A stretch of DNA of 64,000 nt from the NCBI RefSeq assembly GCF_016545825.1, contig NC_052616.1, positions 3,100,001-3,164,000 of the forward strand, in the 5' to 3' direction. This document shows, one piece after another, positions 3,531-54,090 of the stretch; positions within the stretch are counted from its first letter, which is position 1, and each line of letters begins with the position of its first letter. The notes beneath the pieces were generated by a model. That model ran no database searches and was not told where the DNA came from. It saw only the letters and a list, made by a program, of their open reading frames with translations. This DNA comes from Eucalyptus grandis (taxonomy: Eukaryota; Streptophyta; Magnoliopsida; Myrtales; Myrtaceae). The translations under genes and the position numbers were made by a program.

Positions 3531-3590
3531 CCTCTAGATAGAGCAAAGGTTTTCGTGCATGATCTTAGAAAAGTTCGCTTTGGGACGTAC

Positions 3591-4212
3591 CTCTAAAGCG
3601 TGCTTGAAAACACATTTGGGGAGTCTAGGGAAGTGGAAGCTGCCAATTTCTAGCAACTTCTTCAGTGCACTCGCCGAATCAGGCAACAGAACTTCCGACC
3701 ATGTCGGAAACCCCAACCTCTCTAAGCACTCTCGGCTCAGCGACTCTGTCACCACCGGGCCAGAGGACGTCGCCACCACCGACTCGACCAGCTCAGGCTG
3801 CAACTCGGCCAACCTGAACGCCACCACCGCGCCGTAGCTGAACCCGACCACTGTGCACTGTTGCACTCCCAGCTTTGCCAGCCCCTTTGCCAGGCACTCC
3901 GCCTGGAATCCCACAGTCCGGCGGCCGTCGCCGGTAGAGGAACCGCCGAAGAAGAGGAGGTCCGGCACGTAGACCGCATAGTCCTCGCAAGAGCGAGGAC
4001 TTGAACTGCCACGTCAGGATGCCGTCGCCCACGAAGCCGTGGAGGAAGACGACGGCAGGTTTTTTACCGTTGTTGGCATTCTTCTTGGATCGGGTCGGAG
4101 CCCAGATGTTCATGACAGTCCCCGGTTCGACCTCGATCTTTTGAGGTCTCACGCCGGCGAGCTTCATGGTCGCTCGCAACAAGGGTTTGTAAATCTTGAA
4201 AGTGTTCACCAT
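3591..4212 (-). pseudogene. Alpha/beta hydrolase, exon 1 (copy 1), frameshifted
   Basis: First exon of a plant alpha/beta hydrolase of the monoacylglycerol-lipase-like type. It starts MVNTFKIYKPLLRATMKLAG, runs through the oxyanion-side HGFVGDG motif and the PDLLFFGGS strand, and reaches the nucleophile elbow GFSYG (Ser nucleophile). A single-base loss near 3982, relative to copy 2 at 7258-7770, breaks the frame between TWQ and YAVYVPD. The exon ends at KHALE with a good splice donor, GTACGT, at 3590-3585. No exon 2-4 follows on its 3' side. Those exons exist instead at 29.8-33.5 kb, upstream on this strand, so they cannot be spliced to this copy. The catalytic Asp and His would lie in the missing exons. 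I call it a pseudogene unless the frameshift is a sequencing error. Confidence 0.85.
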
Positions 4213-4640
4213 TCTCTCACTCTCTCTCTCAGCCTGATTATGCACGGCGCCGTCCATCTTCGCCATGTACGTCCAGTGGTCATATATTTGTTGGGATATG
4301 TGAAGCCGACGGTGCAGTCTGACCCCACCCCACATCCCTATTATCTTTTTATTTTTCTTTTGTGCTACGTATCATTGGGGGTTGTCTAGTCCCATTCCCA
4401 CCGTTGGAGCTCTCCCCTCCTCTCTCCCGTCTCTCTCCCCCCTTCAATGCCGTCTCTGCAGCCGCAACTTTCGGGTTTATACTTTTCCAATTTCCCCATC
4501 CGCAGTGAGTGGTGGCAAAGAGCATTAGAAGCTCGTTGGTACTTCGATGTTAGTAGATGCCCTTTCTTTACTGTCCCTCTTCCCAAGGCCTTGTGGTTTA
4601 GCAGTCCAGTCCAAAGAGAGAAGAGGAAAGCACAAACTTA
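4213..4640 (-). repeat. Upstream flank duplicated with 7771-8690
   Basis: The 5' flank of hydrolase copy 1 contains blocks near 4478-4540 and 4590-4635 that recur at about 8541-8610 and 8643-8695 upstream of copy 2. Shared landmarks include gcattagaagctcg and gccttgtggtttagca. A CT-rich run adjoins the ATG. This shows that the duplicated unit included the promoter side as well as the exon. Confidence 0.6.
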
Positions 4641-6549: not shown

Positions 6550-7080
6550 CAATAATGGCATGTTTGATAACTAGCCAATTTTTGGTTATTTTTGTTCTTT
6601 TCTTCCTTGGAACAAAAAGAAAATAGAAAATCGTTTAGTATTGTTAGCCTTTTCTTCTCTCGGCGATTCAATTGGACTAATTTAGTCATAATCATTTTCA
6701 CATGAGTACAAAATCTGTCTAGTTAGCCAATTAGGCTAAAATTGTTAACATAAATACCGATTATTCTACATGATACATTCAACATTGATATGAATATTTA
6801 AATGATATTTTTGAATTTTATTCTATTTTTAAATATTTTTTCTAATTATTTTATTTTATTTTTTCATTTCCCTTTTCGTTTTACTAGTGTTGAGGCTAGT
6901 CAACGATCACAGGCCATGACCGATGAGGTTTGGCCTCGCATGGGCAAGGAGAGCACCGAAGAGGTCCCCCTCCCTGGATTTGGCAAGGCCAACTCTCACT
7001 TAGGCTAGGACGGCCTCGCCAGTCAACCTCACCGTGCCTCATAAAGCTAGATATAGCGACAGCGACAGCGAGCTCAGAAG
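6550..7080. mobile_element. Possible non-autonomous element fragment
   Basis: It starts with an atggcatgtttgataact motif and ttccttggaacaaaaag, which resemble the 20093-20962 element. A GC-rich core follows at 6895-7070. The right end appears lost at the junction with hydrolase copy 2. Confidence 0.3.
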
Positions 7081-7257
7081 CGGCAACTTCGGTCCAAGCC
7101 AATGCTCGCACTCACAATGTTTGAAGGAGCCGATGAACTAAGCGAGTTTGTCACCGGTTTTGATGAGTGGCGACGCTGGACCATAGGAACTACAAAGGAA
7201 ATCCAAAAGCAAAGGAGGGGACGAGAGGTGTCAAATTTTGATGGACGACGAGGTGCT

Positions 7258-7770
7258 GTCGTCGGAAACCCCAACCTCTCTAAGCACTCTCGGCTCAGCG
7301 ACTCCGTCAGCACCGGGCCAGAGCACGTCGCCACCACCGACTCTACCTGCTCAGGCCGCAACTCGGCCAACCTGAACGCCACCACCGCGCCGTAGCTGAA
7401 CCCGACCACTGTGCACTGCTGCACTCCCAGCTTTGCCAGCCCCCTTGCCAGGCACTCCGCCTGGAATCCCACAGTCCGGCGGCCGTTGCCGGTGGAGGAA
7501 CCACCGAAGAAGAGGAGGTCCGGTGCGTAGACTGCATAGTCCCTCGCAAGGGCGAGGACTTGGAGCTGCCACGTCAGGATGCCGTCGCCAACGAAGCCGT
7601 GGGGAAGACGACGGCAGGTTTTTACCGTTGTTGGCATTCTTCTTGGATCGGGTCGGAGCCCAGATGTTCATGACAGTCCCTGATTCGACCTCGATCTTTT
7701 CAGGTCTCAATCCGGCGAGCCTCATGGTCGCTCGCAACAAGGGCTTGTAAATCTTGACAGGGTTCACCAT
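7258..7770 (-). pseudogene. Alpha/beta hydrolase, exon 1 (copy 2), frameshifted and truncated
   Basis: Second copy of the exon at 3591-4212. It starts MVNPVKIYKPLLRATMRLAG, contains HGFVGDG, PDLLFFGGSS and the nucleophile elbow GFSYG, and stays similar until LERLGFPT. There homology to copy 1 stops abruptly near 7258, so its 3' part and splice donor are gone. Relative to copy 1 it lacks two bases near 7600-7620, one in GGAGGA and one in a T run, which shifts the frame just before HGF. Copy 1 is intact there but broken elsewhere, so the two copies decayed independently. Confidence 0.85.
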
Positions 7771-8700
7771 TCTCTCTCTCTCTCTCAGCTTGATCAGGCA
7801 CAGAGTCGTCCATCCCGAGAAAATGTACGTCTTCGCCATAATTTATTGGGGGGAAATGATAAGCTGACGGTGGAGTCTGACCCCGCATTTTCCCTTTTAT
7901 CTTTATCTCTTTTTTTTTTGTGCTAGATATCATTGAGTGTTGCCTTTCCCACCACTCCAGGGCTTGGGTAGAGTAGGGGCTTCCGGAGGGTAGCGAGGAC
8001 CAGGGGACGACATGGTCGCAGTTGCAGCCATTTCAATACGGACTGCCAGATAGTTTTTACAAGGACACAGCAAAAATATGAGCAAGCAATATTTTTAATG
8101 CAGAAGGTTCGTACAATAAATCACGCACATACCCAGAAAAACAAAGCAAAGATTAGGCAGCAGAAAGAAGCAAGCGGTGCCATTCAACATGCGGGCATCC
8201 TATAAATGATTAGACCATTAGCAGGCACATACATACAATCCGTTAAAGGGGGGGAGAAAAAACCAATCTTGATGCCTCAGATTCAATGCTCAAGCTTCAC
8301 AAATCGCCGCGCAATCGACCGTAGACGCATTAACGCCGCCAAATCGATCATCCCAAATCAAGGGAAACCCCATCCCGACGACAATTGGCGGCGGCTGCAA
8401 ACGACGCGAGCGCTCCGACAAAACCCGAGATCCAAAATCCAACCCCTTTCCCCACCCCACCCAGAACTCCCCGCGAGGGCTACAACGGCGAAATCGAAAC
8501 CTAGCACCGACCGGAGAAATCCCTAGGCGACCCAATGATGCCGGTTTATACTTTTTCAATTTCCCTTCTGCAACCGTAAGTGAGTGGTGGGAAAGAGCAT
8601 TAGAAGCTCGGTGCTACTTTTTCAATTCCTCCCCTTTTCACGCCTTGTGGTTTAGCAATCCTGTCCAAAGAGAGAAGAAGAAAGCACAAATTTAAAGCGC
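7771..8700. other. Flank of hydrolase copy 2 with a 5'UTR-like segment
   Basis: It contains the copy of the 4213-4640 upstream blocks (8541-8695). Between them, about 8180-8560 is higher in GC and looks, on the minus strand, like a plant gene leader with a first exon (ORF 8559-8290). I do not recognise the product and it may be a captured fragment. Confidence 0.35.
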
Positions 8701-15553: not shown

Positions 15554-16636
15554 TCAAAAGGTGTATTTCTTTTTAGAATGCGTTATGGCATGCGATTGAT
15601 CAGATATGCTGTTGTGACCACACAATTTCCCTAAAAGTTCTCGGGAATAGAAGCTTGAAACTCCAAGGACACGTGCTACTTCTAAGAGGTGACAATGCTT
15701 TCTCTCAACAATTTCATTTATTGTGGTGTATAAGTGCAAGAACTCTCATGCAAGATTCCATTTAGAGAAAATAAAGAAGCACATTCACCATTGAAGAACT
15801 CTATTCCATTATCGTTCGAATTCGATGGATCACTTTTCCAAATTGAGTTTTTGATAAGGAAAGGAAAGTCTTTAGATGAGAAAGGACCTGATTTTTGACT
15901 GCATGAGAAATATCCATGTTGCACGAGAGAAATCATCTACTATTGTGAGGAAAAATTGAGACCCATCATGATTCAGTATGGATTAGAGAAAAAATGTCAT
16001 ATGCTCGGGAAGTACTATTTGGTAAAGGAGCACGTGTTTGTTTTGCCATGGGGGCACATAGGACATTGAGGACAGGGAAATGATGCAGTGTGACCCAATC
16101 TTTTATGATTAAGAAAATTCATATTAATGCGTAGTATTACACAATGATTTATTGAGTTCAACATGAGGTAATTTAAAAAAGTGCAGAAATTCCATCCAAT
16201 AATACAGCCCTTGATTAACTCTACCCAAGCCCATCAGTTTGCCAGATGAAAGGGCCTGAAAGAAACATTTATTAGAACGGAATAGGATACGATATGAATT
16301 TTCTTCACAAGCTCGAGAAACTGATATGAGATTGAAGTGGAAATCAGGGACATATCGCACATTTTGAAGTGTAATGAGGGAACTAAGATTCACAGTGCCT
16401 AACATGGTGACTTTAGTGGTGTTTCCATTTGGAAGTTGTACTGATATGGGGAAAGATAGTTTTTTAATATTGGAAAAGAAAACCTTATCACAGATTATGT
16501 GGTTACTAGCACCTGAATCAATAATCCATGCATTCTTCGAAATTGAGTTCATCAAATAGTAAGATGTACTTATGAAGCTTCCACCCTTACCAGAAGCATC
16601 AAATTTCCTCAATGCTTCCTTCGAAATTGAGTTCAT
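15554..16636 (-). pseudogene. Copia protease, gag-pre-integrase and integrase fragments
   Basis: At 16636-16124 the frame has the protease active-site region AWIIDSGASNHI (D-S-G catalytic motif). LMGLGRVNQGLYYW, the gag-pre-integrase signature, follows. At 15936-15718 GIEFFNGECASLF and at 15739-15554 IVERKHCHLLEVAR match copia integrase core segments. Frames are disjoint. Confidence 0.85.
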
Positions 16637-16730
16637 TCGACGGTGCTAATTTTTCCATTGGTTGGCCCGATACTTGAAAAACTGTCGAAAATTTCACTTT
16701 TTCTTTTTCTCTTGGTTTTCCATGCAATTT

Positions 16731-36306: not shown

Positions 36307-36877
36307 TTATAAAGAGATAAGGTGAGAGAGGATCCCTTGTCTAATGCCTCTAGTTGGCGCGAAACTTTCTCCCCGTTTCCCATTAATTAGAATACGAAAT
36401 TGAGGAGGAGATGCAAAATCGACCAGACTAACCCATTTCTCGTTGAAGCCCATCTTTTCCATACAATCACAAAGAAAGTCCCACTCAACTCGATCGTACG
36501 CTTTCGCATATCCAGCTTCAGCATTGCTTGGAATTTTTGGCGATTTTCTCACTCTAAGTTGATGTAGGACTTCTTGAACTATGAAAATATTGTCCCGTAT
36601 TTGGCGGCCTGCAACAAATGCACTCTGTTTCTTGGGAAATAATGGATGGAAGCCAAGGTTTAAGTCTGCTTGCCATTACTTTAGTGATCACTTTTGTAAT
36701 TAAAATTACACAAACCGATGGGTCGGGTCGGTAATGCTCGGGGTTGGCCACCTTGGGGATAAGTGTGATAAATGTCTCATTTAATCTTGGATCAAAGGAA
36801 CCATCTCTAAAGAAAGCGTCTACCATTTGAAAAATATCTTCCGAATAAGATGCCATTGACTTTGATGAAGAGGCCAC
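36307..36877 (-). pseudogene. LINE reverse transcriptase core
   Basis: Two adjoining frames (36877-36554 and 36552-36307) give RT blocks 1-5, including FITLIPKV, HYRP, YDRVEWDFL, RILINGKRGESFAPTRGIRQ and G. The FADD-equivalent catalytic block follows near 36200 in another frame. Confidence 0.85.
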
Positions 36878-42116: not shown

Positions 42117-42669
42117 CTTCAGGATTTGGACTTAATTTAAGGAGGAGATGGCGGCATCTTTCGGCACGGTATTTATGGGTTCGCATCGATACCAATCCAG
42201 ACGCTTCATGAATGTTTTAGTTCTTAGTATTTCCATCGAATGGGAGACACTGGACAAACTCTTACTTTTGTATTTTACTTATTGCATGGCCATTGACATA
42301 ATCAAGTCAACAAACCAGTCGCACAAAATGTTGATAAGAGAAAACCAGCTGCATGAATGAGACACATTGTTGGTCCTTACAAGTATTGAAATTTGTGGCG
42401 TCACTTCCAACTTATCTAAAAGCCATAAACAGAATCTGGAAACGTGATTTTCCCCATCTTTCCCTCCGCATTGAACTCACGTTATAGGTGGAAGAGTAAC
42501 TTTAATTCAATCACTTCAATACCATGCAGCTAAACATCAAAGGTTGATCACGGGAGAAGCAATAATTCTATACTAAAAGAACAACCAGTTCTATAAGTAT
42601 TGTTCACTTTTCGCAGGAGCACAAGCAACTGCACAATACTGTCATCTTCCCATCATTAGTTTTTTTTAG
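42117..42669. other. Spacer between solo LTR and MULE
   Basis: The first bases continue the 5' flank of the proline-rich gene on the minus strand. The short plus-strand ORF 42148-42360 is not recognised. Confidence 0.4.
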
Positions 42670-42949
42670 GGATATGTTCAGCAGAAATCCTAAAACTTGT
42701 CAACAAAGTGCAATTGAGTCCTAAAACTTACAAAAAGTGCAATCAAGTCCTAAAATTTGTCAAGTTGGTTCAATTGAGTCATTTCATTAACACCGTCAAT
42801 TTATATTAACGGAAATTGCTGACTTGGCTTATTTTAATACTTTCTCTCTCCTACGTGGCAATTAGGGCAAGAAAAATTGTGCACGTCAGCAAAACGACGT
42901 AGTTTTGTGGATATTGTCCATTATCAAAACGACGACGTCTCCCCCTCCA

Positions 42950-43380
42950 TTTTTTTTTATGACATTTCCCCCTCTTTTTTTTTATGACATCTCCCCTTGC
43001 ATTTTTCGTCCATCCCTTCTTCCCCTTTCGAATCAATGCAACCCTAAGCCCTAAATCTCGACGCAGATCACCGGTGCCTCGCGAGTTGCAGTTCTTCATC
43101 AAACGCTGGTGCGAGGACGCGTGACACTCATCCCACAAGAGCCTTGGTGGTGGATCGAGCGACGCCAACGATGGAGGCACTCACTATGACCGAGCTTCGC
43201 AACCGATTTCCCTCATAAGAAACAGGATTCATGCTCAAGTTCTGGACAATTCCTGGATGGTTATCCTCTTCCATCGCCTTTTGATGTCCTCACCACCGCC
43301 GATCAACACCAATGGCCGCTCCTCCGCTTGCTCTGTCGAACAGTACAGCAGAAACTTCAGCAACAAATTGTAAATGAGGC
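42950..43380 (+). pseudogene. Captured gene fragment in left TIR (N-terminal-like, possibly PPR)
   Basis: Plus-strand frames carry FFVHPFFPFRINATL-type sequence, then ELQFFIKRWCED, HSSHKSLGGGSSDANDGGTH, YDRAS-PISLIRNRIHAQVL and DNSWMVILFHRLLMSS. The arginine- and serine-rich start looks like an organelle-targeting leader, which PPR proteins often have; the assignment to PPR is inference. One stop interrupts it after RWCEDA. The right arm has the same fragment on the minus strand at 52450-52882. Confidence 0.5.
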
Positions 43381-43460
43381 CTGTGTTCATGAAATTGAAG
43401 TAAGTTCATCAGTTCTTGTTTTCGAGACATAGCAATTCGTGAAACAAATATCTTTTTCTC

Positions 43461-44060
43461 TTAAAATAAACTTGATACTTCTTTTAATTCACCTACCATA
43501 AAATAGTCCTTTAGTAAAGCACAATGAGAAGAAAGTGACAAAGAAGAATTATCTCTCAGCATAGTATCGTTAACTGCAGTTGCTTCAGTAAACCTTCTTG
43601 CTTTGCAAAGAAGAGGAATTAAAAAAACTGAAGCATTCAGATGAGGGAATAGTCCCTTCGCTTGCATGGTATCAAATATACTTAAGGCTTCTAAGTATTT
43701 CTTTTTCCTACAAAATCCCCTTATAAGGTGACTATATGCCCTATACTCTATTAAGCAACCCCTCTTATGCATTTCTTTTGCAAGTGCATATGCAATGGTA
43801 CTTAAACCTGCATCACGAGTTTCTCAAAGAAGACATCAATAACATTAGAGACATGGAAGGCCATAAGAGTGCTTTCAAAAAGCTCTAGTGCTTCAGCGAT
43901 CAATGCATTTTGGATAAGACAACCGACAAGAGGTTCAAGTTCTCTCAGTCCTGGAACCCACTTAGATTCTCTAACCAGATCCAAGCAACCACTTAGTTCT
44001 CCCAGAAATCCTTGCTAAAAAAGACTTGTCATAAAGATGTTATAAGTCTTGTTCTCAATC
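43461..44060 (-). pseudogene. PPR protein fragment in left TIR, frameshifted
   Basis: Minus-strand frames 43984-43802 (LVRESKWVPGLRELEPLVGC) and 43772-43461 (MHKRGCLIEYRAYSHLIRGF) match the continuous right-arm copy at 51698-52354. One base is missing near 43816 (catcacgag against catcacagag on the right), which splits the frame. The 35-residue PPR helical hairpin pattern is clear in the second frame. Confidence 0.8.
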
Positions 44061-44478
44061 ATAAAGATGTTATAAGCCTGCATGTGTAAGATCATCCCTA
44101 GGCAGCATATCAAGTAGGAAATAGCTACCTAACAAGAGGCTGAGTTTATATGCATGATGATTGTTCAGTGACCTGAAATAGGGAGGCTGCTCTGATTAAT
44201 ATAAAACTGAAAAGCAGCATATATAAAATGAAAATGTACCTTTTCTGTGACCAGGAGATGAAACGGTTATACATGTTTTTGCTGAGTTGCATTTTAGTCT
44301 ATCTTTTTTAGTAAAAAAATTGAAAATTGTCGATTGACATCACGAATTAATGGCAGAATAATAGCTTGAGAGCCATCTAGTATAAAAAGCTAAAATGAAG
44401 GAAATCTCTTGGCAATGCTTACATCACAAGAGTAAAGTGATGCGGTTTTGTGCTAAACCAATCTGTGAGATGTGTACA

Positions 44479-44701
44479 TGAAGATTTGATGACTTCCTTT
44501 CTTCTAAATTAGTTCAGTTTACTATCACTTTCAGCTCCTTTTTTGTCGATGCTGGTTGCTAATACTTGTATTTGGAATGAGTTTATTGGAGGGTTGACTA
44601 CTCTTAAGGTCATCCATCAACATGGGTATGTTTACCCTACCCATTTCTCTTTACAAGTGAAGTCATTAGTAATTTTTAGTTGAAATTTTACAATTGAAAG
44701 T
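44479..44701. other. Spacer between left TIR and transposase
   Basis: Single-copy relative to the right arm. No ORF of note. It may hold the transposase promoter. Confidence 0.4.
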
Positions 44702-47399
44702 GCTATTTGTTTTTATTCCTTTATAGGTCCAACGGGCAACAACAAAGTTTATGTCACTTTGTTTTCTTCGGAGGTAAATTTCAAGTTGAACCGCCCTTAG
44801 AATACGTAGATGGAAGGGCTGATGTTGTTGAAGTAGACTTAAGTAAGGGTTCATTATCCAACATAATTGAAGCTGTTGAGGTTCTATGTGGGCGTAAAAT
44901 AGAAAAAAATCTTTTATAGAGTTCTGGATGTAATATTCTTGAAGATGGAATAACTCTTAGGTATTTATGGGATAACTCTGATGTGATAGATCAATTTTAT
45001 TATCATCTTCACTCTGAAAATATTGAATTGTATGTTGAGCATGTCGATGATGAAGAAACACTTGCTAAGATAGGGGGAGTTGAGATGGAAATTGGAGATT
45101 TGTTTGATATGAATATGGAAAGTGTTAACAATCTGGCTGATAATGTGTTTGAAAATATAATTGGAAATGCCGATGGTGATGGGAATCAGGTTGAGGGTGA
45201 AAGTAAGGATTTGGATGATGAGAATGATGATGCATGTAATTTGGTGGATGCTGAACAGTCGAGTGACGATGATGATTTTGAATTGGTTAATGCAAGAAGA
45301 AATTTAAAGGAATTTTTAGCGAGACATAAACTCAAAATTGGAACTAACATTGAAGAAACTTCTCAATTAGACATTGACTCTCAAACTCCATTATCAGTTG
45401 ATCCTCTAATGGTGGATGCTTCTGGGTACGAAACAGAGTATTATGATTCAAATGAAGAAGAAAGTCTTCATTCAGATTTAAATGATGAGAGTGAAAAAGA
45501 AGAAAATGTGTTATTTCAAGAAGGAGGAGTAGGTTTCTATCATATGATCGAAATGATAAGAATCCAGTATTTGTTGTTGGTATGACATTTGAAGATTCAA
45601 GTGAGTTCAAAGATGCAATTTTGAGGTACTTGGTGGCTGAGCAAAGAGCAATTAAATATACCAAGAACACCACTGGATTTGTAAGAGCTAGGTGTGCCTA
45701 AGCTAATTGTAACTGGATGATTTATGGTGCTCTCGATAGCAAAACCGGATTATTTCATTTGAAAAAGTACATTGATAAGCATACATGTGCTATCACTTTT
45801 GAGAATAAGAGAGTTTCCAGTTTTTTCTTAGCTAAACACTTTATGATTCGCATTTCTGCAATGCCTAAAATCAATGCACCTTAGTTGAAGATATTAGTTA
45901 GAGAATAGTTTGGGGTGAATGTCACTGTGAGTCAATGCAGGAGAACAAAGCTAAAAGTGTTCGAGGAATTACAAGGCAATTATAAGAAGAAGTATGCACT
46001 GATGTACGATTACTTGGGAGAGCTTTACATTGTAAGCCGGGTGAGCACATTTAAATTGAAAGTTGAAAGACCACGACCAGATTCCTTACCATTATTTGAT
46101 AGGGCTTACATTTGCTTTGATGCCTGTAGGAAAGGATTTTTGGCAGGGTGTCAAAAGATCATTGGATTAAATGGATGTTTTCTTAGGGGATTAATCAATG
46201 GTGAGTTGTTGTGTGCTGTGGGGAGGGATGCTAACAATCAAATGTATCAAATAGCATGGGCAGTTATAAGAATTGAGAATAAGGACACATGGAGCTGGTT
46301 TATTAACTTGTTGAAAAAAGATCTTGACATGTGCAATAGTAATGGTTGGGCCTTAATAAGTGACCAACAAAAGGTATGTAATACTACTATCGCTCATCTT
46401 GAATTTGTTTGCAACAATGTATATAATGATTTTCAATATTAATATTTTCTTTTCTTTTTTTATATACTGGGGCCTCATCCGTTCAGTAGTTGAACTTTTG
46501 CCAAATGCAGAATATAAAATGTGTGCGAGGCATATATATTCTAATTGGGTCAAAAATACAAAGGAAAGTAATTGATGAAACAATTCTGGAGATGTGCTAA
46601 GTGTACTAATATGTCAGATTTTGAGGTGCATAGACAGAGATTGAAGGAAATGACTCCACAAGGTCATGATGATCTATTTTAGATTGAGCCAAAGCACTGG
46701 TTTAAAGCCTTCTTTGACACCAACATAAAATGTGATGTTGTTGATAATAATCTTAGTGAAGTTTTCAATGGTAGGTGTGTGGAAGCTAGGTGCAAGGCCA
46801 TTGTGAGTATGTTTGAAGATATTAGAATCATGATTATGAATAAAATGCATAGTCAAAGGGATGCATGTGCGAAGTGGATAAGAAATTATGGTCCAAGGAT
46901 TGTGCATAAGTTACATCAGAATACAATGGCTAGTAGATATTGCCATTTGATATGGAATGGAGATCAAAGATACGAGATTATGGAAGATGGTGACAAATAT
47001 GTTGTAGACTTGAATTTGAAGACTTGTTCTTGTAGAGCTTGGGAAGTTAGTGGAATTTCATGTTGCCATGCTATATGTGCAATACACCACAAGAAAAATG
47101 ATCCAAGTGACTACTTAGCCGAGTGCTTCAACAATAACAAATACTTAAGTGCTTATCAATTCATGATGCCTACTGTGAAAGGACATAAATTTTGGGGCAA
47201 AACTAATAAAGAAGCCCCTTAGCCCCCACCGATCAAAAAGATGTCTGGTAGGCCAAAAAGAAGTAGAAGAAAGCAACCACTTGAATTTGTAAGACAGAAC
47301 ATAATGACTAAAGAGGGTAAACGAATGACTTGTTCTACTTGCCATGTGGTTGGACATAATTGCAAAGAATGTCCTATGAAAAAGGCATTTCTTAACTAA
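44702..47399 (+). pseudogene. MULE transposase (MURA-like), broken by stops
   Basis: The N-terminal region reads CHFVFFGGKFQVEPPLEYVD, then an acidic linker at 45050-45500. The MULE DNA-binding and DDE region begins at PVFVVGMTFEDSSEFKDAIL. The transposase core reads FDACRKGFLAGCQKIIGLNG, CFLRGLINGELLCAVGRDAN and NQMYQIAWAVIRIENKDTWS, then ISDQQK. The expected catalytic Asp in GLDGCF is Asn here. A likely intron (about 46375-46460) separates the Q-K block from ELLPNAEYKMCARHIYSNWV. A SWIM zinc finger follows (CSCRAWEVSGISCCH at about 47028-47072), then a CCHC knuckle (CSTCHVVGHNCKECP). In-frame stops near 44920, 45701, 45884, 45908, 46680 and 47221 kill it. Confidence 0.88.
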
Positions 47400-47460
47400 T
47401 TGATTTTGTTGATTCTAAGCTCGTTGTCTTGTCATGAATGCTTACTATGTGCTTTTTAGG

Positions 47461-48356
47461 CCCATGCAAATGCACCTGAAGCTCAATCTCAAGCCAATTC
47501 CAGTGGATCAAGGCCTACAAAAAGACAAGTATTTTGTGATAGATTCATGCATTATAAGTTATAAATGTGAAGGTTTCGATTTACTAATGATGAATATATA
47601 TGCAGGCTAAAGCTACTGTAATGACAAGTACAACTCAAGGAGGATCCAAAGGCCGTGTCATTGCTTCTGCAGAAGCTAGTGCACTTGTACAAGATAATAG
47701 TGGGCAGACGAATTCTTCAGCCAATGCTTTTGCAGAAGCTAGTGCACAAGTAGAAGATACTTCTGCCAATGCTTTTGCAGAAGCTAGTGCACCAATTGAA
47801 GATACTTCAGCCAATGCTTTCGTAGAAGGATGTGCACCAATACATGATACTTTAGCCAATGCTTTTGCAGAAGTCAGTGTACATTTACAAAATACTTCAA
47901 CCAATGCTTTTGCTCAAGTTGATGTGCCAGCACAAGATACTTTAGTCAATGCTTGTACAAAACTTAGTGGATCAGTGCAAGATAATTCAGCCAATGCTTT
48001 TACTCAGTCTAGTGTAAATGAAAGAGGATGTTGGGCTACTGCTAATGTAAGTGGATGTAGTGGACATGCCAATTCTTTTGTTGAAGCTAGTGTTAATCAA
48101 CGACAAATTTTTTTTCATGCTCAAGCCAATGCAATAGCTAGCAGCAGACCTCAAAAAATCCCAGTGAGTAATACATCACCACCCATGCATTCATGTGTTG
48201 TGATTACATTCTCACATTCGATTTTTTTTTCTTTTTCAGTTTAAAAGACTTGCCATTGAAATGGAAATGATACAAGGGCAGTCACAATTGAAGAAGAAGA
48301 AAATGGTAGGGTTGGGTGTTTACACAAATCCTAAAAACAACATTCAAATTCTCAAT
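47461..48356 (+). pseudogene. MULE transposase C-terminal exons with 15-residue repeats
   Basis: Three exons with good splice sites continue the transposase: about 47461-47527 (acceptor ttttag), 47605-48161 (acceptor tatgcag, donor gtgagt) and 48240-48356 (acceptor tttttcag, donor gtgagt). The middle exon holds about seven tandem units of 15 residues of the type ANAFAEASAPIEDTS (45-bp period, about 47715-48010). The last reads KKKKMVGLGVYTNPKNNIQI, then LN, a tail seen in other plant MULE transposases. Confidence 0.65.
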
Positions 48357-48549
48357 GTGAGTATGTTTTAACACTTTACAATGGGAACCGACTGTCTCCT
48401 TGAACTAAAAACATACCCATTCTTTTGTAACTTGGCTCAACTGATACAAGATTATTGAAACAACCAGACATAGGAGTAGTTTTGGGAGCTTCAATGGAAA
48501 AGGTGCTTTCCCAAGCCAGTGCATAGCCTCAATCATCTCTAAGTGCTCT

Positions 48550-48910
48550 TTGAAAGCATGTTGTTGTGAAGTTAAAGCCACCATTGCAACTCCAAGACAG
48601 TTTGCAGCTTCAAGCATTAAGAACTTATCCTCGAAAGCACATCGGTGTAAAGCCAAAGCCACCATTGCACCCCCAGGCAAGTTCTCAGCCTCAATCCTGA
48701 AAACATGTTGCCATAAAGCCGAAGCCGAAGCCACCATCACAACCGCCAGTGAGTTTACAGCCTCAGTCATCTCATACTTCAATTGCTCCCCCAAAGCCTA
48801 TTTAGAAGAGAGTCACAGGAGGCACACCATATACAATGAAAAGCTCACGACTTATGAATCAAGTGCACGTTGAACCTGCTGGACCACCCGAGACAGTAGA
48901 CTTGGATTGA
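48550..48910 (+). pseudogene. Terminal transposase exon, Pro/Gln-rich
   Basis: The plus-strand frame carries three imperfect tandem units starting at 48552, 48633 and 48699, each with a KPKPPL-type core, then PPKPI-KRVTGGTPYTMKSS and a stop at VDLD (about 48909). The minus-strand ORF here (48794-48405) is a shadow of the repeats. Confidence 0.5.
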
Positions 48911-50184
48911 TGTGCTTGCTAAATGTGTCAGGTCTCATGAAAGTTGCAACAAGAAATTCTCCTTTAACATTATCTTAGGTGCTAGTTTTGCTGGCCAATT
49001 TCTTATATGGTTTGTGGTTTGTAGTGTTTTGTAGCAATCAATTTCAGTGATTTTGTAATTATCAAAGAACGTGTTGGGATTGTGTTTAATGACTCGTCCC
49101 TTCTGTTGTATACATTTGAGAATATCCTATTCGTGTCTCTACCTCTTGGCTGCAGTAGTGCAATGTGCAAATTTATCTGCCTAATAAAAGAGCAACTTTG
49201 TTTTGCATCCGTGTATTTGAGGCAGCATGCCGTGGAACGTGCATATTCCTTTTCAGTTTCTTTGTTTGAATAGGAGTTTTATTTCTGTTGAGCACCTCTG
49301 TTGCACAAGGCTACTAGTACTTATGGAATAAGTATCTTTCATTTATCTTTGTATAAACTTCAAGTTAAGTGGTCATGCTTATTACTCAAGCAGTCTATGT
49401 TCAAAACATTTTTCTCATTTCAAAATGTCTATAGATTATTATTGTGCTGATTCTGATGAATGTGACCAAATCTATGCACTACCCGTCTGGCCTTTTCATC
49501 TGCTTCATTTTGATTGCTTGAAAATTGCAGATTCCTTGAAACTCAATAATGATATTTTGTACATGACAAATCACAAATCAGATCCAGCTATCATGGGTTG
49601 CTTCAAGTTCCCAACTTCTGACCTAAGATCTTTGCTGGAGTTGTAATAACTTGTAAATCTCTCTCGCTTTTAACAACGGTACCATATGTTTTTTACTTCT
49701 CCCATCTTTGGAGAATGTAAGAAAGTTTGTACCGTAGATATCACCTCGAAGGACATTAATAAGTTGCTGCATTATTAACGTAGACTCCTGTAATATGTGG
49801 CTCCTATCTAATTCCATCTCCTCTCTATTTTTCAAAGTACACGTATGCCACACTCAACTGTATGTAGTCATGAAAGGCCTGGTTTGCTTTCAAATTCTTG
49901 TGTGCTCTGTCTTTTGTCTATTGCGTTGCTGCTTCCCAGACTTCATTTCCATAAATACATGAGAGTGCTCTATCTTTTTTCCTTTGATGGAACATTTAAA
50001 AAAATCATCATCCAAATAGCATTCACTAAAAGAACACACGAAATGAATTAAGCTTGTTTACATTTCCACGCAACATGAGTTTTCTAATTTTACAGGGCAA
50101 AAGAGAATTGGGATAAAGTAATTAAATACAAACTTAGAAACAAAGTACTATGGAAGACTCAGAAACTTCTCACTAGCTTTCACA
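48911..50184. other. MULE interior, short unrecognised ORFs
   Basis: ORFs at 49425-49646 (plus) and 49853-49623 (minus) overlap antisense. Neither is recognised. Some of this may be captured host sequence. Confidence 0.35.
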
Positions 50185-50633
50185 TTAAATATAATCCCTA
50201 TAATGATATAACACATGCATAGAAAAAATCCCAATTGATAGACCATCTTCTCTTTCTTCACTCGTGCAAGCTCTTCCTTTAAAAGTCCAGTTTTTCGCCT
50301 TTTGCGTCTTCATTTTAGCTATCAGTGAGCTCACATAATCGTCGTTGCATATAGATTGGCTTGACTTCGATAGTGCTTGATTTCTTTCAAGCAATTCGAC
50401 TATCATGTCCCTCACTTGATCCGGTATTTTTGGGTCAAACCACATGAAGAAATTGCAGCAACCTAGACCATCAAACTTAGCACATCCATAAAACCTTATT
50501 CCTGCGTTTTCTTTGTTTTTGCAATAAGAAGTGGTGATTGAAGACCACAATAGCAAGTTAACTCTGATTCGACCTCATTAGGAGTTACACCACTTGATTT
50601 AGAAGTTGTTGGCCTCGTTCTTCTTATCACCAT
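50185..50633 (-). pseudogene. GRF-type zinc-finger protein inside the MULE, one frameshift
   Basis: A start MVIRRTRPTTSKSSGVTPNE leads into ELTCYCGLQSPLLIAKT, after which one base is out. The frame then resumes as ENAGIRFYGCAKFDGLGCCN, then FFMWFDPKIPDQVRDMIVEL. The C-x-C, C and C spacing and the RFYGC and FF-W-D motifs are those of GRF zinc fingers. The rest is a short coiled-coil-like tail with a hydrophobic end. Small GRF proteins of this form are common in plant genomes and may be element-borne. It is convergent with the transposase. Confidence 0.7.
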
Positions 50634-51337
50634 ATTAAAAAAGCATATCACAGTTGCAAACTAGCAAAACCTACACCATAGGAGAATAAAGGCAAGTTAA
50701 TTCATTAAAAAGTATCTTGAGCAATGAGATAAATTGTTTGAATACATTAAGTACCAACAACATTCAAGTTATTCAAAATCTATTGTAGTACAACTCATTT
50801 AGGAAGTTTGTAGGAAGACCAACTTCACATTAGAATCCTCAGCAGTATATCCAGATCGATAAGAACTTATTGAGTCAACCAGATTTGGAGCTGTCTCACG
50901 AAGAATCTCTTGCCTATTAGATAAAAGGTAATGAGGAAAAAAAATTCCCAGCACCTATTAGTCCATCGTTCTTTGACTTGATGATAAATTCTTACAGCAG
51001 CCTTAAATGCTGGATTAGATAAGGCCACAAAAGTGCTAATAGATAATGCTTATCTGATGTAACTTACGTATAGGACAAAACGAGTTCACAGAGTTTACGT
51101 GATGTACAAAAAGCTATACATCTTAGTCCATGCTGAACCATTTCCGCGAACAGACCAGACACTTCCCAAATCGGATTGCAAGAGTGAATTAAGTGGATAA
51201 GGATACAATGTGATGATCTATGTACAATGTAATTTGGATTGGATTTGTTCAACAGAACCGACGCTATCACACCATCCTTCCTGCACTTGCAGACAGAACT
51301 AACTAAAGCACTTGGTAAGGGACATTACAGCAGGGAC
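50634..51337. other. MULE interior spacer before right TIR
   Basis: AT-rich and unrecognised. One minus-strand ORF at 51270-51064 has no family match. Confidence 0.4.
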
Positions 51338-51697
51338 ATATCTCACAGATTGGTTTAGCACAAAACCGCATCACTTTACTCTTGTGATGTAAGCATTCCC
51401 AAGAGATTTCCTTCATTTTAGCTTTTTATACTAGATAGCTCTCAAGCTATTATTCTACCATTAATTCGTGATGTCAATCGACAATTTTCAATTTTTTTAC
51501 TCAAAAAGATAGACTAAAATGCAACTCAGCAGAAATATGTATAACCGTTTCATCTCTCGGTCACAAAAAAGGTACATTTTCATTTTATATATGCTGCTTT
51601 CCGATTTTATATTAATCAGAGCAGCCTCCCTATTTCAGGTCACTGAACAATCATCGTGCATATAAACTCAGCCTATTGTTAGGTAGCTATTTCCTAC

Positions 51698-52354
51698 TTG
51701 ATATGCTGCCTAGGGATGATCTTACACATGCAGGCTTATAACATCTTTATGATTGAGAACAAGACTTATAACATCTTTATGACAAGTCTTTTTGAGCAAG
51801 GATTTCTGGGAGAACGAAGTGGTTGCTTGGATCTGGTTAGAGAATCTAAGTGGGTTCCAGGACTGAGAGAACTTGAACCTCTTGTCAGTTGTCTTATCCA
51901 AAATGCATTGATCAGTGAAGCACTAGAGCTTTTTGAAAGCACTCTTATGGCCTTCCATGTCTCTAATGTTATTGATGTCTTCTTTGAGAAACTCTGTGAT
52001 GCAGGTTTAAGTACCATTGCATATGCATTTGCAAAAGAAATGCATAAGAGGGGTTGCTTAATAGAGTATAGGGCATATAGTCACCTTATAAGGGGATTTT
52101 GTAGGAAAAAGAAATACTTAGAAGCCTTAAGTATATTTGATACCATGCAAGCGAAGGGACTATTCCCTCATCTGGATGCTTCAGTTTTTGTAATTCCTCT
52201 TCTTTGGAAAGCAAGAAGGTTTACTGAAGCAACTGCAGTTAACGAGGCTGTGCGGAGAGATAAGTCTTCTTTGTCACTTTCTTCTTCTCATTGTGCTTTA
52301 CTAAAGGGCTATTTTATGGTAGGTGAATTAAAAGAAGCATCAAATTTATTTTAA
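51698..52354 (+). pseudogene. PPR protein fragment in right TIR, open frame of 218 aa
   Basis: The frame runs uninterrupted with GCLDLVRESKWVPGLRELEP, an ALELFESTLMAF helix, and a clear 35-residue PPR unit around YRAYSHLIRGFCRKKKYLEA, LSIFDTMQAKGLFPH. A further repeat begins DASVFVIPLLWKARRFTEAT. It ends at KEASNLF with a stop. PPR proteins are organellar RNA-binding factors of several hundred residues; this is a short piece with no leader of its own, so a captured fragment. The M at 51698 is only the first Met of the ORF. Confidence 0.85.
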
Positions 52355-52449
52355 GAGAAAAAGATATTTGTTTCACGAATTGTTATGATTCGAAAACAAG
52401 AACTGATGAGCTTACTTCAATTTCACGAACACGGGCCTCATTTACAAGT

Positions 52450-52882
52450 TACTGCTGAAGTTTCTGCTGTACTGTTCGACAAAGCAAGCGGAGGAGCGGC
52501 CATTGGTGTTGATCAGCAGTGGCGAGGACATTAGAAGGTGATGGAAGAGGATAACCATCTAGGAATTGTCCAGAACTCGAGCATGAATCCCGTTTCTTAT
52601 GAGGGAAATCAGTTGTGAAGCTCGGTCATAGTGAGTGCCTTCATCGTCGGCACCGCTCGATCCACCACCAAGGCTCTTGTGGGACGAGTGTCGCACGTCC
52701 TTGCACCAGCGTTTGGCGAAGAACTGCAACTCGCGAGGCACCGGTGATCTGCATCGAGATTTAGGGCTTAGGGTTGCGTTGATTCGAAAGGGGAAGAAGG
52801 GATGGACGAAAAACGCAAGGGGAGATGTCGTAAAAAAACGGAGGGGAGACGTCGTCGTTTTGATAATGGGCAATATCCACAA
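52450..52882 (-). pseudogene. Captured gene fragment in right TIR (N-terminal-like, possibly PPR)
   Basis: The minus-strand ORF starts near MWILPIIKTTTSPLRFFTTS and carries FFVHPFFPFRINATLSPKSR, ELQFFAKRWCKDVRHSSHKS, LGGGSSGADDEGTHYDRASQ and LISLIRNGIHARVLDNS, with a stop at 52559. The left copy reads W at that codon and continues WMVILFHRLL. It lies convergent with the PPR frame at 51698-52354, so the two pieces cannot be one colinear gene. Confidence 0.5.
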
Positions 52883-53117
52883 AACTACATCGTTTTGCTG
52901 ATGTGCACAATTTTTCTTGCCCTAATTGCCACGTAGGAGAGAGAAAGTATTAAAATAAGCCAAGTCAGCAATTTCCGTTAATATAAACTAATGATGTTAA
53001 CGGAAGGACTCAATTGAACCAACTTGACAAATTTTAGGACTTGATTACACTTTTTGTAAGTTTTATGACTCAATTGCACTTTATTGACAAGTTTTAGGAC
53101 TTCTGCTGAACATATTC

Positions 53118-53500
53118 ATTTTTTTTTTATTCCTTCAATCCAGAAGCAATTGTTTGAAAAAAGATCTATCCTTTATCAGGTAATTTCAGCGAGGAAAAGT
53201 AGACGACAACGAATATCCAGAAGGTAATGACAAACATAGTAAAAGCTAAAACATTTCGAGCTTTTCCTGAGAAACTCAAAGAGCAATAATCTGTTAGTCC
53301 AACAAATCCGTCAAGTTATGCATGCAATGCCATAACGCTTTTTCATAAGCGAACAACTAGCAGCAGCAACTACTAGTCTCGAAAGCGACACAATTGATGT
53401 ACTTCCAAATGCCACAAGACCCATCTGAACCCAAGAAGACATGAATTGCGACCCACGAAGAAACCATCAAAATCAGCACCAGAGAAATTGACACATGCAC
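53118..53500. other. Spacer between MULE and DUF538 pseudogene
   Basis: No feature recognised beyond the T-rich insertion site. Confidence 0.4.
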
Positions 53501-54029
53501 TTATGCATCCACACGCATGATCTCTCGCGGATTTACCTCAATTCCTTGCTTCCACGACCCGCTGCACGGACCGGCGACCTTGTCCCGGCACAAGTGGACG
53601 GTCTGGAACTGATCCACGTCCAGCCTCTTTTTGACGAACCCCACCTGGAAGTAGACGGAGTTGGAGGGGGGCAGGTCGACCGCGATCTCGTCGACGTCGG
53701 GCCAGAACAGGAACCGCTGAACCTGGGGATCCCCTTCAAGTTCGTGATGGAGCCGTAGCTGAGCTTCCTGGTGACCTGCCGGTCGTAGCAGACCAGGTAG
53801 TCGAACTGGACGTAGCAGGGGCCCTCGAAGTCGACGGCGAACTGGCCATCGTCGGAGAGGTTGTAGGACCGGATGGAGTTCGGGAGCAGGCCGCCGAGGA
53901 GGCCGAATTTGGGGAGGAGCTCGTAGACTATCGGAGGGGAGCTAGGGTTAGGGATAGAGAGAGAAAGGGGAGGGAAGAGGGCGAGGATGGAGACGAGAGT
54001 TAGAGAGAAAAACCGGAGGGAAGCTCCAT
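53501..54029 (-). pseudogene. DUF538 family protein, frameshifted
   Basis: The minus strand carries the plant DUF538 pattern: a hydrophobic leader (RFFSLTLVSILALFPPLSLS), VYELLPKFGLLGGLLPNSIR, SYNLSDDGQFAVDFEGPCYV and QFDYLVCYDRQVTRKLSYGS, then ITNLKG. After a frame change it continues with VQRFLFWPDVDEIAVDLPPS, NSVYFQVGFVKKRLDVDQFQ and TVHLC. The first break is just after ATG (54029-54027), where two extra bases separate it from the leader frame. The second is at GGGATCCCCAGG, near 53717. A stop lies at 53503-53501, though GAG|GTAAAT near 53537 could be a splice donor. DUF538 proteins are small, mostly secreted and of unclear biochemical role. The family call is firm; loss of function assumes the indels are real. 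Confidence 0.82.
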
Positions 54030-54090
54030 GGCGTCAAATTTGGATTAATGGATCTTAATGATAATCAAAGATAAAAGAACAAGTAATCTA

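What the first reader, a model, noticed from the sequence alone, without database searches (positions are those of the whole stretch)
42670..53117. Autonomous-type MULE whose giant TIRs carry a duplicated PPR gene fragment
The two arms are about 1.8 kb and inverted, and each contains the same PPR coding piece. The element also carries its own transposase between them. Known Pack-MULEs carry captured fragments between short TIRs and usually lack transposase. Here the cargo is inside the repeats and therefore present as inverted copies 8 kb apart. If both arms are transcribed, or one transcript reads through, the result is long double-stranded RNA against a PPR gene family, a possible natural silencing trigger.
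Basis: partly seen in the sequence, partly recalled or inferred. Interest (0 to 1): 0.82.

Follow-up and report, generated by a model that had tools for sequence, protein, structure and literature searches.

The report
Plant transposon arms carrying gene piece
A dead plant "jumping gene" with unusually long mirror-image ends holds, in both ends, a 606-letter piece of a gene from another chromosome, and the joins still show in detail how the piece was probably picked up.

Summary
A Mutator-like element (MULE) lies at 42669-53118; its 1.8-kb inverted arms are 95.2% identical and both hold the same PPR gene piece. The host genome (answered once) allowed a test. The likely parent is an open 1,248-codon PPR frame on contig C9; the piece is 606 bp from its middle. 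Two relatives lack it and have about 50 bp instead. The junctions show short shared motifs and an 18-base backtracked duplication, as template-switching repair leaves. The 5' junction is shared by 4 of 4 known arms, so one capture and then copying to the other arm is likely. Two points of the reading change. Giant arms are a family trait: 10 of 10 other copies examined have arms of 0.9-2.7 kb, and 0 of 10 carry the PPR piece in the stretches read. The transposase is broken, so the element is not autonomous now. The PPR-bearing copy on C10 is a 20-kb segmental duplication, not a second jump. Silencing is untested: PPR reads outward, so inward transcripts from both ends would be antisense to it and could not pair with each other; double-stranded RNA needs read-through, or pairing with parent mRNA.

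The parts
42660..42668 (.). left target site duplication TTTTTTTTA
   Evidence: flank sequence; empty paralogous site on C10
42669..44475 (+). left giant terminal inverted repeat (TIR); terminus GGGATATGTTCAGCAG, subterminal 29-bp tandem repeats at 42688-42763
43463..44064 (-). captured PPR gene fragment, left arm (one premature stop, one frameshift)
44622..47396 (+). mudrA-like transposase gene, decayed: start ATGG|GTATGT at 44622, intron 44626-44726, then DBD_Tnp_Mut, MULE, SWIM and a CCHC-like knuckle (13.1 bits, below cut-off), with in-frame stops and frameshifts
47594..48241 (+). open frame built on a 45-bp repeat (array 47715-48001), no Pfam match
50185..50633 (-). GRF zinc-finger gene, convergent to the transposase, frameshifted (start codon read by eye)
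51336..53118 (-). right giant TIR, inverted copy of the left; its last bases read CATATTC where sister copies have CATATCCC
51747..52352 (+). captured PPR gene fragment, right arm, inside a 223-codon open frame (51683-52351)
53119..53129 (.). right target site duplication, T-run lengthened (T10-A)

Best explanation
A member of a MULE family with 0.9-2.7 kb TIRs suffered a break in one arm, between the outer TIR and the transposase start. Repair lost about 50 bp and filled the gap by copying 606 bp of a PPR gene on another chromosome, entering, slipping back and leaving at short shared motifs. The filled arm was then used as template for the other arm (gap repair after excision, or gene conversion), so both hold the piece. 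The element sits beside a DUF538 gene, was methylated and decayed, and a 20-kb block holding it was later duplicated to C10. Shown by sequence: element, parent gene, relatives without the piece, junctions, family arms, duplication. Inferred: the repair route, the arm-to-arm copying and the methylation. The PPR piece most likely does nothing as protein; an effect of its antisense RNA on the parent is possible and untested.
For: Parent: 1,248-codon frame on C9 with strong PPR matches, 95.7% identical over 607 columns. State without the piece: C2:30.385 Mb and C10:5.730 Mb have arm sequence on both sides of the site (on the outer side only 133 bp in C10) and a similar filler of about 50 bp. Junctions: the 5' junction with its 18-base backtracked duplication in 4 of 4 arms; the 3' junction at TATTTT, shared by parent and the C2 relative, found in 3 of 4 arms (C10_R did not match the search pattern). 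Both arms of the C10 duplicate carry the piece and the flanks are collinear, so the two-arm state predates the duplication unless later conversion intervened; the tree pairs left with left (0.969) and right with right (0.884). Giant arms in 10 of 10 other members, PPR in 0 of 10. Perfect 9-bp target duplications in 4 of 8 other elements scanned for ends (C7a, C1, C8a, C5b). Arm differences of C/T or G/A type at 31 of 108 CG, 13 of 105 CHG, 24 of 526 CHH sites.
Against: The shared motifs are 2-6 bp and can occur by chance; the C10:5.730 relative does not have the TATTTT motif. No relative with PPR in one arm only was found, so the order capture-then-copy is inferred. The broken C9 copy also matches (95.1%), so the exact donor is uncertain. 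By raw distance C5_R is closer to C5_L (0.0288) than to C10_R (0.0347), so the right-arm pairing rests on the tree alone. The window's own target duplication is a T-run and matches 8 of 9.
Confidence: 0.78

Rival explanations
1. The element is a natural silencing locus: read-through of the inverted PPR arms gives a hairpin, or antisense leaders pair with the parent mRNA, and the siRNAs lower expression of the C9 PPR gene.
For: 256 of 582 21-mers of the left arm's piece and 223 of 586 of the right arm's occur unchanged in the parent; the arms share 690 perfect 21-mers in register; both pieces lie antisense to inward transcription; the mutation pattern suggests methylation. Precedents for the idea: antisense PPR capture in a grapevine CACTA (PMC2528002, passages) and Mu killer (PMC3440606, abstract and passages).
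Against: No RNA data here. The arms are 6.86 kb apart with AATAAA motifs between them on both strands. Inward transcripts from both ends have the same polarity and cannot pair. The pieces show no sign of protein constraint, which neither helps nor excludes an RNA role. In Mu killer plants that silence, short antisense RNAs were the main products, though the authors leave a hairpin role open (PMC3440606, passages).
Confidence: 0.12
2. PPR was captured twice, or captured as an already inverted pair, with no arm-to-arm copying.
For: Both arms have it and no one-arm intermediate was seen.
Against: The same 5' junction with the same 18-base backtracked duplication in 4 of 4 arms and the same 3' junction in 3 of 4.
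Confidence: 0.08
3. Ordinary Pack-MULE: a gene fragment between short TIRs, read as TIR by mistake.
For: Captured gene fragment in a MULE.
Against: The fragment is inside the inverted repeat of both ends, a transposase gene lies between, and 10 of 10 other members examined have arms of 0.9-2.7 kb without it.
Confidence: 0.03
4. Assembly artefact: one arm copied by the assembler.
For: Long inverted repeats are hard to assemble.
Against: The arms differ at 85 aligned positions, and the C10 duplicate also has two arms with the piece.
Confidence: 0.02

Closest known systems
Pack-MULEs (rice, tomato, maize)
   Same: MULE with a captured, broken piece of a host gene and a chromosomal parent
   Different: Cargo lies in both TIR arms, not between them; the element also carries its own, now broken, transposase; arms are 1.8 kb against a typical 100-500 bp (PMC3310237, passages)
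Tandem-TIR MULEs, PM-ZIBP of tomato
   Same: MULE with enlarged ends that carries a gene fragment
   Different: There the extra length is a second TIR copy and the gene fragment is internal (PMC3310237, passages)
Cactavine-5 of grapevine
   Same: Transposon with a PPR coding piece turned so that element transcription would give antisense PPR RNA
   Different: CACTA superfamily; the piece lies downstream of the transposase frame (PMC2528002, passages)
MuDR and Abermu
   Same: Transposase gene, in MuDR and some Abermu types also a second gene in the opposite direction; Abermu has mostly A/T-rich 9-bp target duplications
   Different: Hvu_Abermu TIR 138-145 bp; here the second gene matches a GRF zinc finger (PMC9168764: abstract, sections 13, 15, 16 and passages)
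Mu killer
   Same: Inverted duplication inside a Mutator element, proposed source of silencing RNA
   Different: Duplicates transposase sequence and acts on MuDR; here the duplicated piece is a host gene and no action is shown (PMC3440606, abstract and passages)
FARE foldback elements
   Same: Long palindromic ends, classified as MULEs (mention in PMC4486113, passages)
   Different: The FARE paper itself was not read; sizes and contents are not compared

Membership tests
Mutator-like element (MULE) | mudrA-like transposase domains | tested here: met
   MULE and SWIM above cut-off; DBD_Tnp_Mut below cut-off in the window and above it in sister C7a
Mutator-like element (MULE) | 9-bp target site duplication | tested here: inconclusive
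   Window: T-run, 8 of 9. Of 8 other elements scanned for ends: 9 of 9 in four, 6 and 7 of 9 in two T- or A-run sites, not readable in two
Mutator-like element (MULE) | terminal inverted repeats | tested here: met
Autonomous MULE | intact transposase frame | tested here: not met
   in-frame stops and frameshifts; two extra bases in exon 2 against the sister copies
Pack-MULE | captured host gene fragment with a chromosomal parent | tested here: met
Pack-MULE | fragment internal to the TIRs, no transposase of its own | tested here: not met
   fragment inside both arms; transposase remnants between
siRNA-producing inverted repeat locus | 21-24-nt small RNAs from the arms | not testable with these tools
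   no RNA data available

The most novel reading that the evidence does not exclude
In this family the TIR arms work as a ratcheting cargo bay: foreign DNA that repair puts into one arm is copied to the other, so arms grow and cargo always travels as an inverted pair. PPR in the C5 element would be one case; the private 1.28-kb stretch held in both arms of C7a and of C5b a second, of unknown origin.
Probability: 0.35. Interest if true: 0.7.

Novelty: new variant of a known kind. Interest (0 to 1): 0.52.

Why it matters
How MULEs come to hold gene pieces is still called perplexing (abstract start of PMC8277862, seen in the listing). Here the donor gene, the state without the piece in two relatives, the state with it, and the junctions are all readable in one genome, and they point to template-switching repair inside an arm followed by arm-to-arm copying. 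It also documents a group of MULEs with TIRs of up to 2.7 kb, against 14-500 bp among the elements of a survey across eukaryotes (PMC6446971, passages), and gives a defined locus to test whether inverted captured host DNA makes siRNAs against its parent.

Tried and rejected
Intron model: from the window alone I joined an ATG at 43374 through a GTAAGT donor at 43400 to exon 2 at 44727 and got an open frame, which would have put the PPR piece in intron 1. Sister copies refuted it: the true frame of exon 2 is another one, and a start ATGG|GTATGT with a short intron is found in 8 of 10 sequences scanned, the window included (C2a and C8b had no match to the acceptor pattern). The PPR piece lies antisense in the 5' leader; whether the leader is spliced is open.

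The C10 copy first looked like an independent insertion; flanks from window 34388 to 54548 are collinear with it, so it is a segmental duplication.

Selection on the PPR piece: between the window arms 16 amino-acid-changing codons (one a stop) and 0 synonymous, 3 codons with gaps set aside; with 143 of 669 sites synonymous this has p 0.02, noted, not explained. From the parent to the four arms: 16-20 nonsynonymous plus 0-1 stop against 5-10 synonymous, 4-10 gapped codons set aside. No sign of protein constraint. The low divergence of the PPR stretch (K2P 0.029 against 0.075 in 42861-43460) goes with few CpG-context positions: 12 of 600 against 90 of 572.

Searches that gave no relatives: protein database with the PPR piece (none of 1,497 candidates at E 0.001; none of 521 at E 10), viral contigs, bacterial and archaeal genomes. 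PPR pieces beyond C5, C9 and C10 are not excluded: one search scored 40 of 2,045 candidates, and the search with the PPR piece alone did not complete. Pfam scans of inner arm stretches of C8a and C7b gave nothing. In ten paper searches I saw no title, abstract start or passage that reports a MULE with captured gene DNA inside both TIR arms; the library holds open-licence papers only, and two papers of interest were not held.
Full report
What is there. The window holds a Mutator-like element at 42669-53118. Its arms, 42669-44475 and 51336-53118, are inverted and 95.22% identical over 1,779 aligned positions (93.5% with gaps). Between them lie, on the + strand, the remains of a mudrA-like transposase (MULE and SWIM above their cut-offs; DBD_Tnp_Mut below), an open frame built on a 45-bp repeat, and on the - strand a GRF zinc-finger frame. 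Each arm holds a PPR coding piece that reads outward: - strand in the left arm, + strand in the right.

Boundaries. A paralogous locus on C10 (near 23285290) has both flanks side by side without the element. The left flank ends in TTTTTTTTA and the right begins T10-A, a low-complexity target duplication that matches 8 of 9. Sister elements make the case clearer: of 8 others scanned for ends, C7a, C1, C8a and C5b have identical 9-bp duplications, C4 and C8c have T- or A-run sites with 6 and 7 of 9, and C8b (masked flank) and C7b (left end pattern not found) could not be read. The ends that were found begin GGGATATGT; the window's own right end did not match the pattern, its last bases having changed.

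The genome. The genome search answered once: the window is C5:3100001-3164000 of a 616.5-Mb assembly in 36 contigs. The two nearest transposase relatives, both named, are from Eucalyptus globulus (53% identity) and Psidium guajava (52%), so a myrtle-family host is likely (inference).

The family has giant arms. I fetched both ends of 10 further members taken from the hits; weaker hits were not fetched, and four of the ten (C8a, C7b, C5b, C8c) have an unread middle of 0.4-2.2 kb. Inverted arms run from 874 to 2,715 bp: C7a 2,715, C5b 2,709, C7b 2,542, C4 1,809, C8b 1,802, C8a 1,778, C1 1,456, C4b 1,452, C2b 1,290, C8c 874 (in seven of the ten the match comes in more than one main piece, identities 83-98.5%). 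The PPR piece is in 0 of 10. C2b carries a caveat: its inverted match runs past the element ends into the flanks. A survey read in passages gives 14-500 bp for the MULE TIRs it covers (PMC6446971).

The parent. C9 holds an open frame of 1,248 codons (stop to stop) with strong PPR matches (L009:2350-6093). The captured piece is L009:4291-4894, 95.7% identical to the right arm. A second, broken copy on C9 (L010) matches at 95.1% in two pieces and groups with the parent.

Relatives without the piece. C2:30.385 Mb continues into the transposase side, C10:5.730 Mb into the right side; both have the arm sequence on either side of the site (on the outer side only 133 bp in the C10 copy) and a similar filler of about 50 bp. 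Since they belong to different sides, long arms probably predate the capture, and the capture replaced about 50 bp.

The junctions (coding strand of the PPR). On the 5' side the arm reads CAGGCT and runs into the parent at CTTATAACATC: the overlap at the join itself is CT, but the parent also has AGGCTTA a little upstream, which would allow a 5-base entry and a 4-base switch. The copy then holds CTTATAACATCTTTATGA, steps back across TGA, and runs on through the parent including the same 18 bases again (today's parent differs at one of them). On the 3' side the arm, the parent and the C2 relative share TATTTT; the C10:5.730 relative does not have it. The 5' junction with its duplication is in 4 of 4 arms; the 3' junction was found in 3 of 4, C10_R not matching the search pattern. 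This is the footprint expected of template-switching repair synthesis (established knowledge), and it speaks for one capture followed by copying to the other arm.

The order of events. The C10:23.26-Mb element is not a second insertion: window 34388-54548 is collinear with C10 23283201-23261492, at about 93-97% in the long blocks, so a 20-kb block was duplicated after insertion, and both of its arms carry the piece. In the tree the left arms of C5 and C10 pair (0.969), the right arms pair (0.884), and the two C9 copies pair (0.957); by raw distance C5_R is slightly closer to C5_L than to C10_R, so the right-arm pairing is the weaker one.

State today. The transposase has several in-frame stops and at least two frameshifts, read from the three frames, and two extra bases in exon 2 against sister copies. 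Even C7a, with an uninterrupted 575-codon stretch holding two transposase domains, shows shifted frames further on. C/T or G/A differences between the arms fall on 31 of 108 CG sites, 13 of 105 CHG and 24 of 526 CHH, with 17 transversions besides, the pattern that methylated cytosines leave. The PPR piece shows no protein constraint: 16 changed codons (one a stop) and 0 synonymous between the window arms, and a stop and a frameshift on the left.

Silencing. The raw material exists: 690 perfect 21-mers in register between the arms, and 256 of 582 (left) and 223 of 586 (right) 21-mers of the piece unchanged in the parent. But geometry matters. Inward transcription from the two ends, as known for MuDR (PMC3310237, passages), would give the same antisense PPR strand from both arms; these cannot pair with each other. 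Double-stranded RNA needs a transcript through the whole element (6.86 kb between arms, AATAAA motifs on both strands), or read-through from the neighbouring DUF538 gene, which points at the right arm but is itself frameshifted, or pairing with the parent mRNA. Maize data summarised in a review link captured fragments with siRNAs and silencing of donor genes (PMC13317346, passages). Nothing here shows that it happens at this locus.

How it compares. It is a MULE by domains and TIRs. It shares the captured fragment with Pack-MULEs but fails their usual definition on two points: the fragment lies inside both arms, and the element has a transposase gene. Antisense PPR capture has a precedent in a grapevine CACTA (PMC2528002, passages). 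I judge it a new variant of a known kind, made interesting by the before-and-after record.

Noticed in passing
L025:1390-2660 (C7:55148089-55149359) and the matching stretch of the C5b arm (L035): Private 1.28-kb stretch inside both giant arms of two sister elements, flanked by a roughly 180-bp direct repeat; one of six frames gives a weak match to mitovirus RNA polymerase (24.2 bits, below the cut-off of 25). Origin unknown, perhaps organelle DNA with a viral relic. Described only.
   Followed up: partly
window 53504-54033: DUF538 gene on the - strand pointing at the element; the domain is split between two frames, so it is frameshifted or misassembled. A related locus on C10 lacks the element.
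   Followed up: partly
L015 (C2:52665500-52672700): Sister element whose flanking DNA is itself inverted-repeated: the inverted match begins at base 1 of the fetched stretch, outside the element ends.
   Followed up: no
window 3537-4371 and 7077-7842: Two related gene copies (88.7% identical over 702 bp); the second matches alpha/beta hydrolases (Abhydrolase_1).
   Followed up: no
window 16127-16645 and 36313-36675: Retroelement remains: Pol_BBD and RVT_1 matches, both on the - strand.
   Followed up: no
window 43463-44064 against 51747-52352: All 16 scorable codon differences between the arms' PPR pieces change the amino acid (one to a stop), 0 are synonymous; more lopsided than neutral decay predicts (p 0.02).
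   Followed up: no
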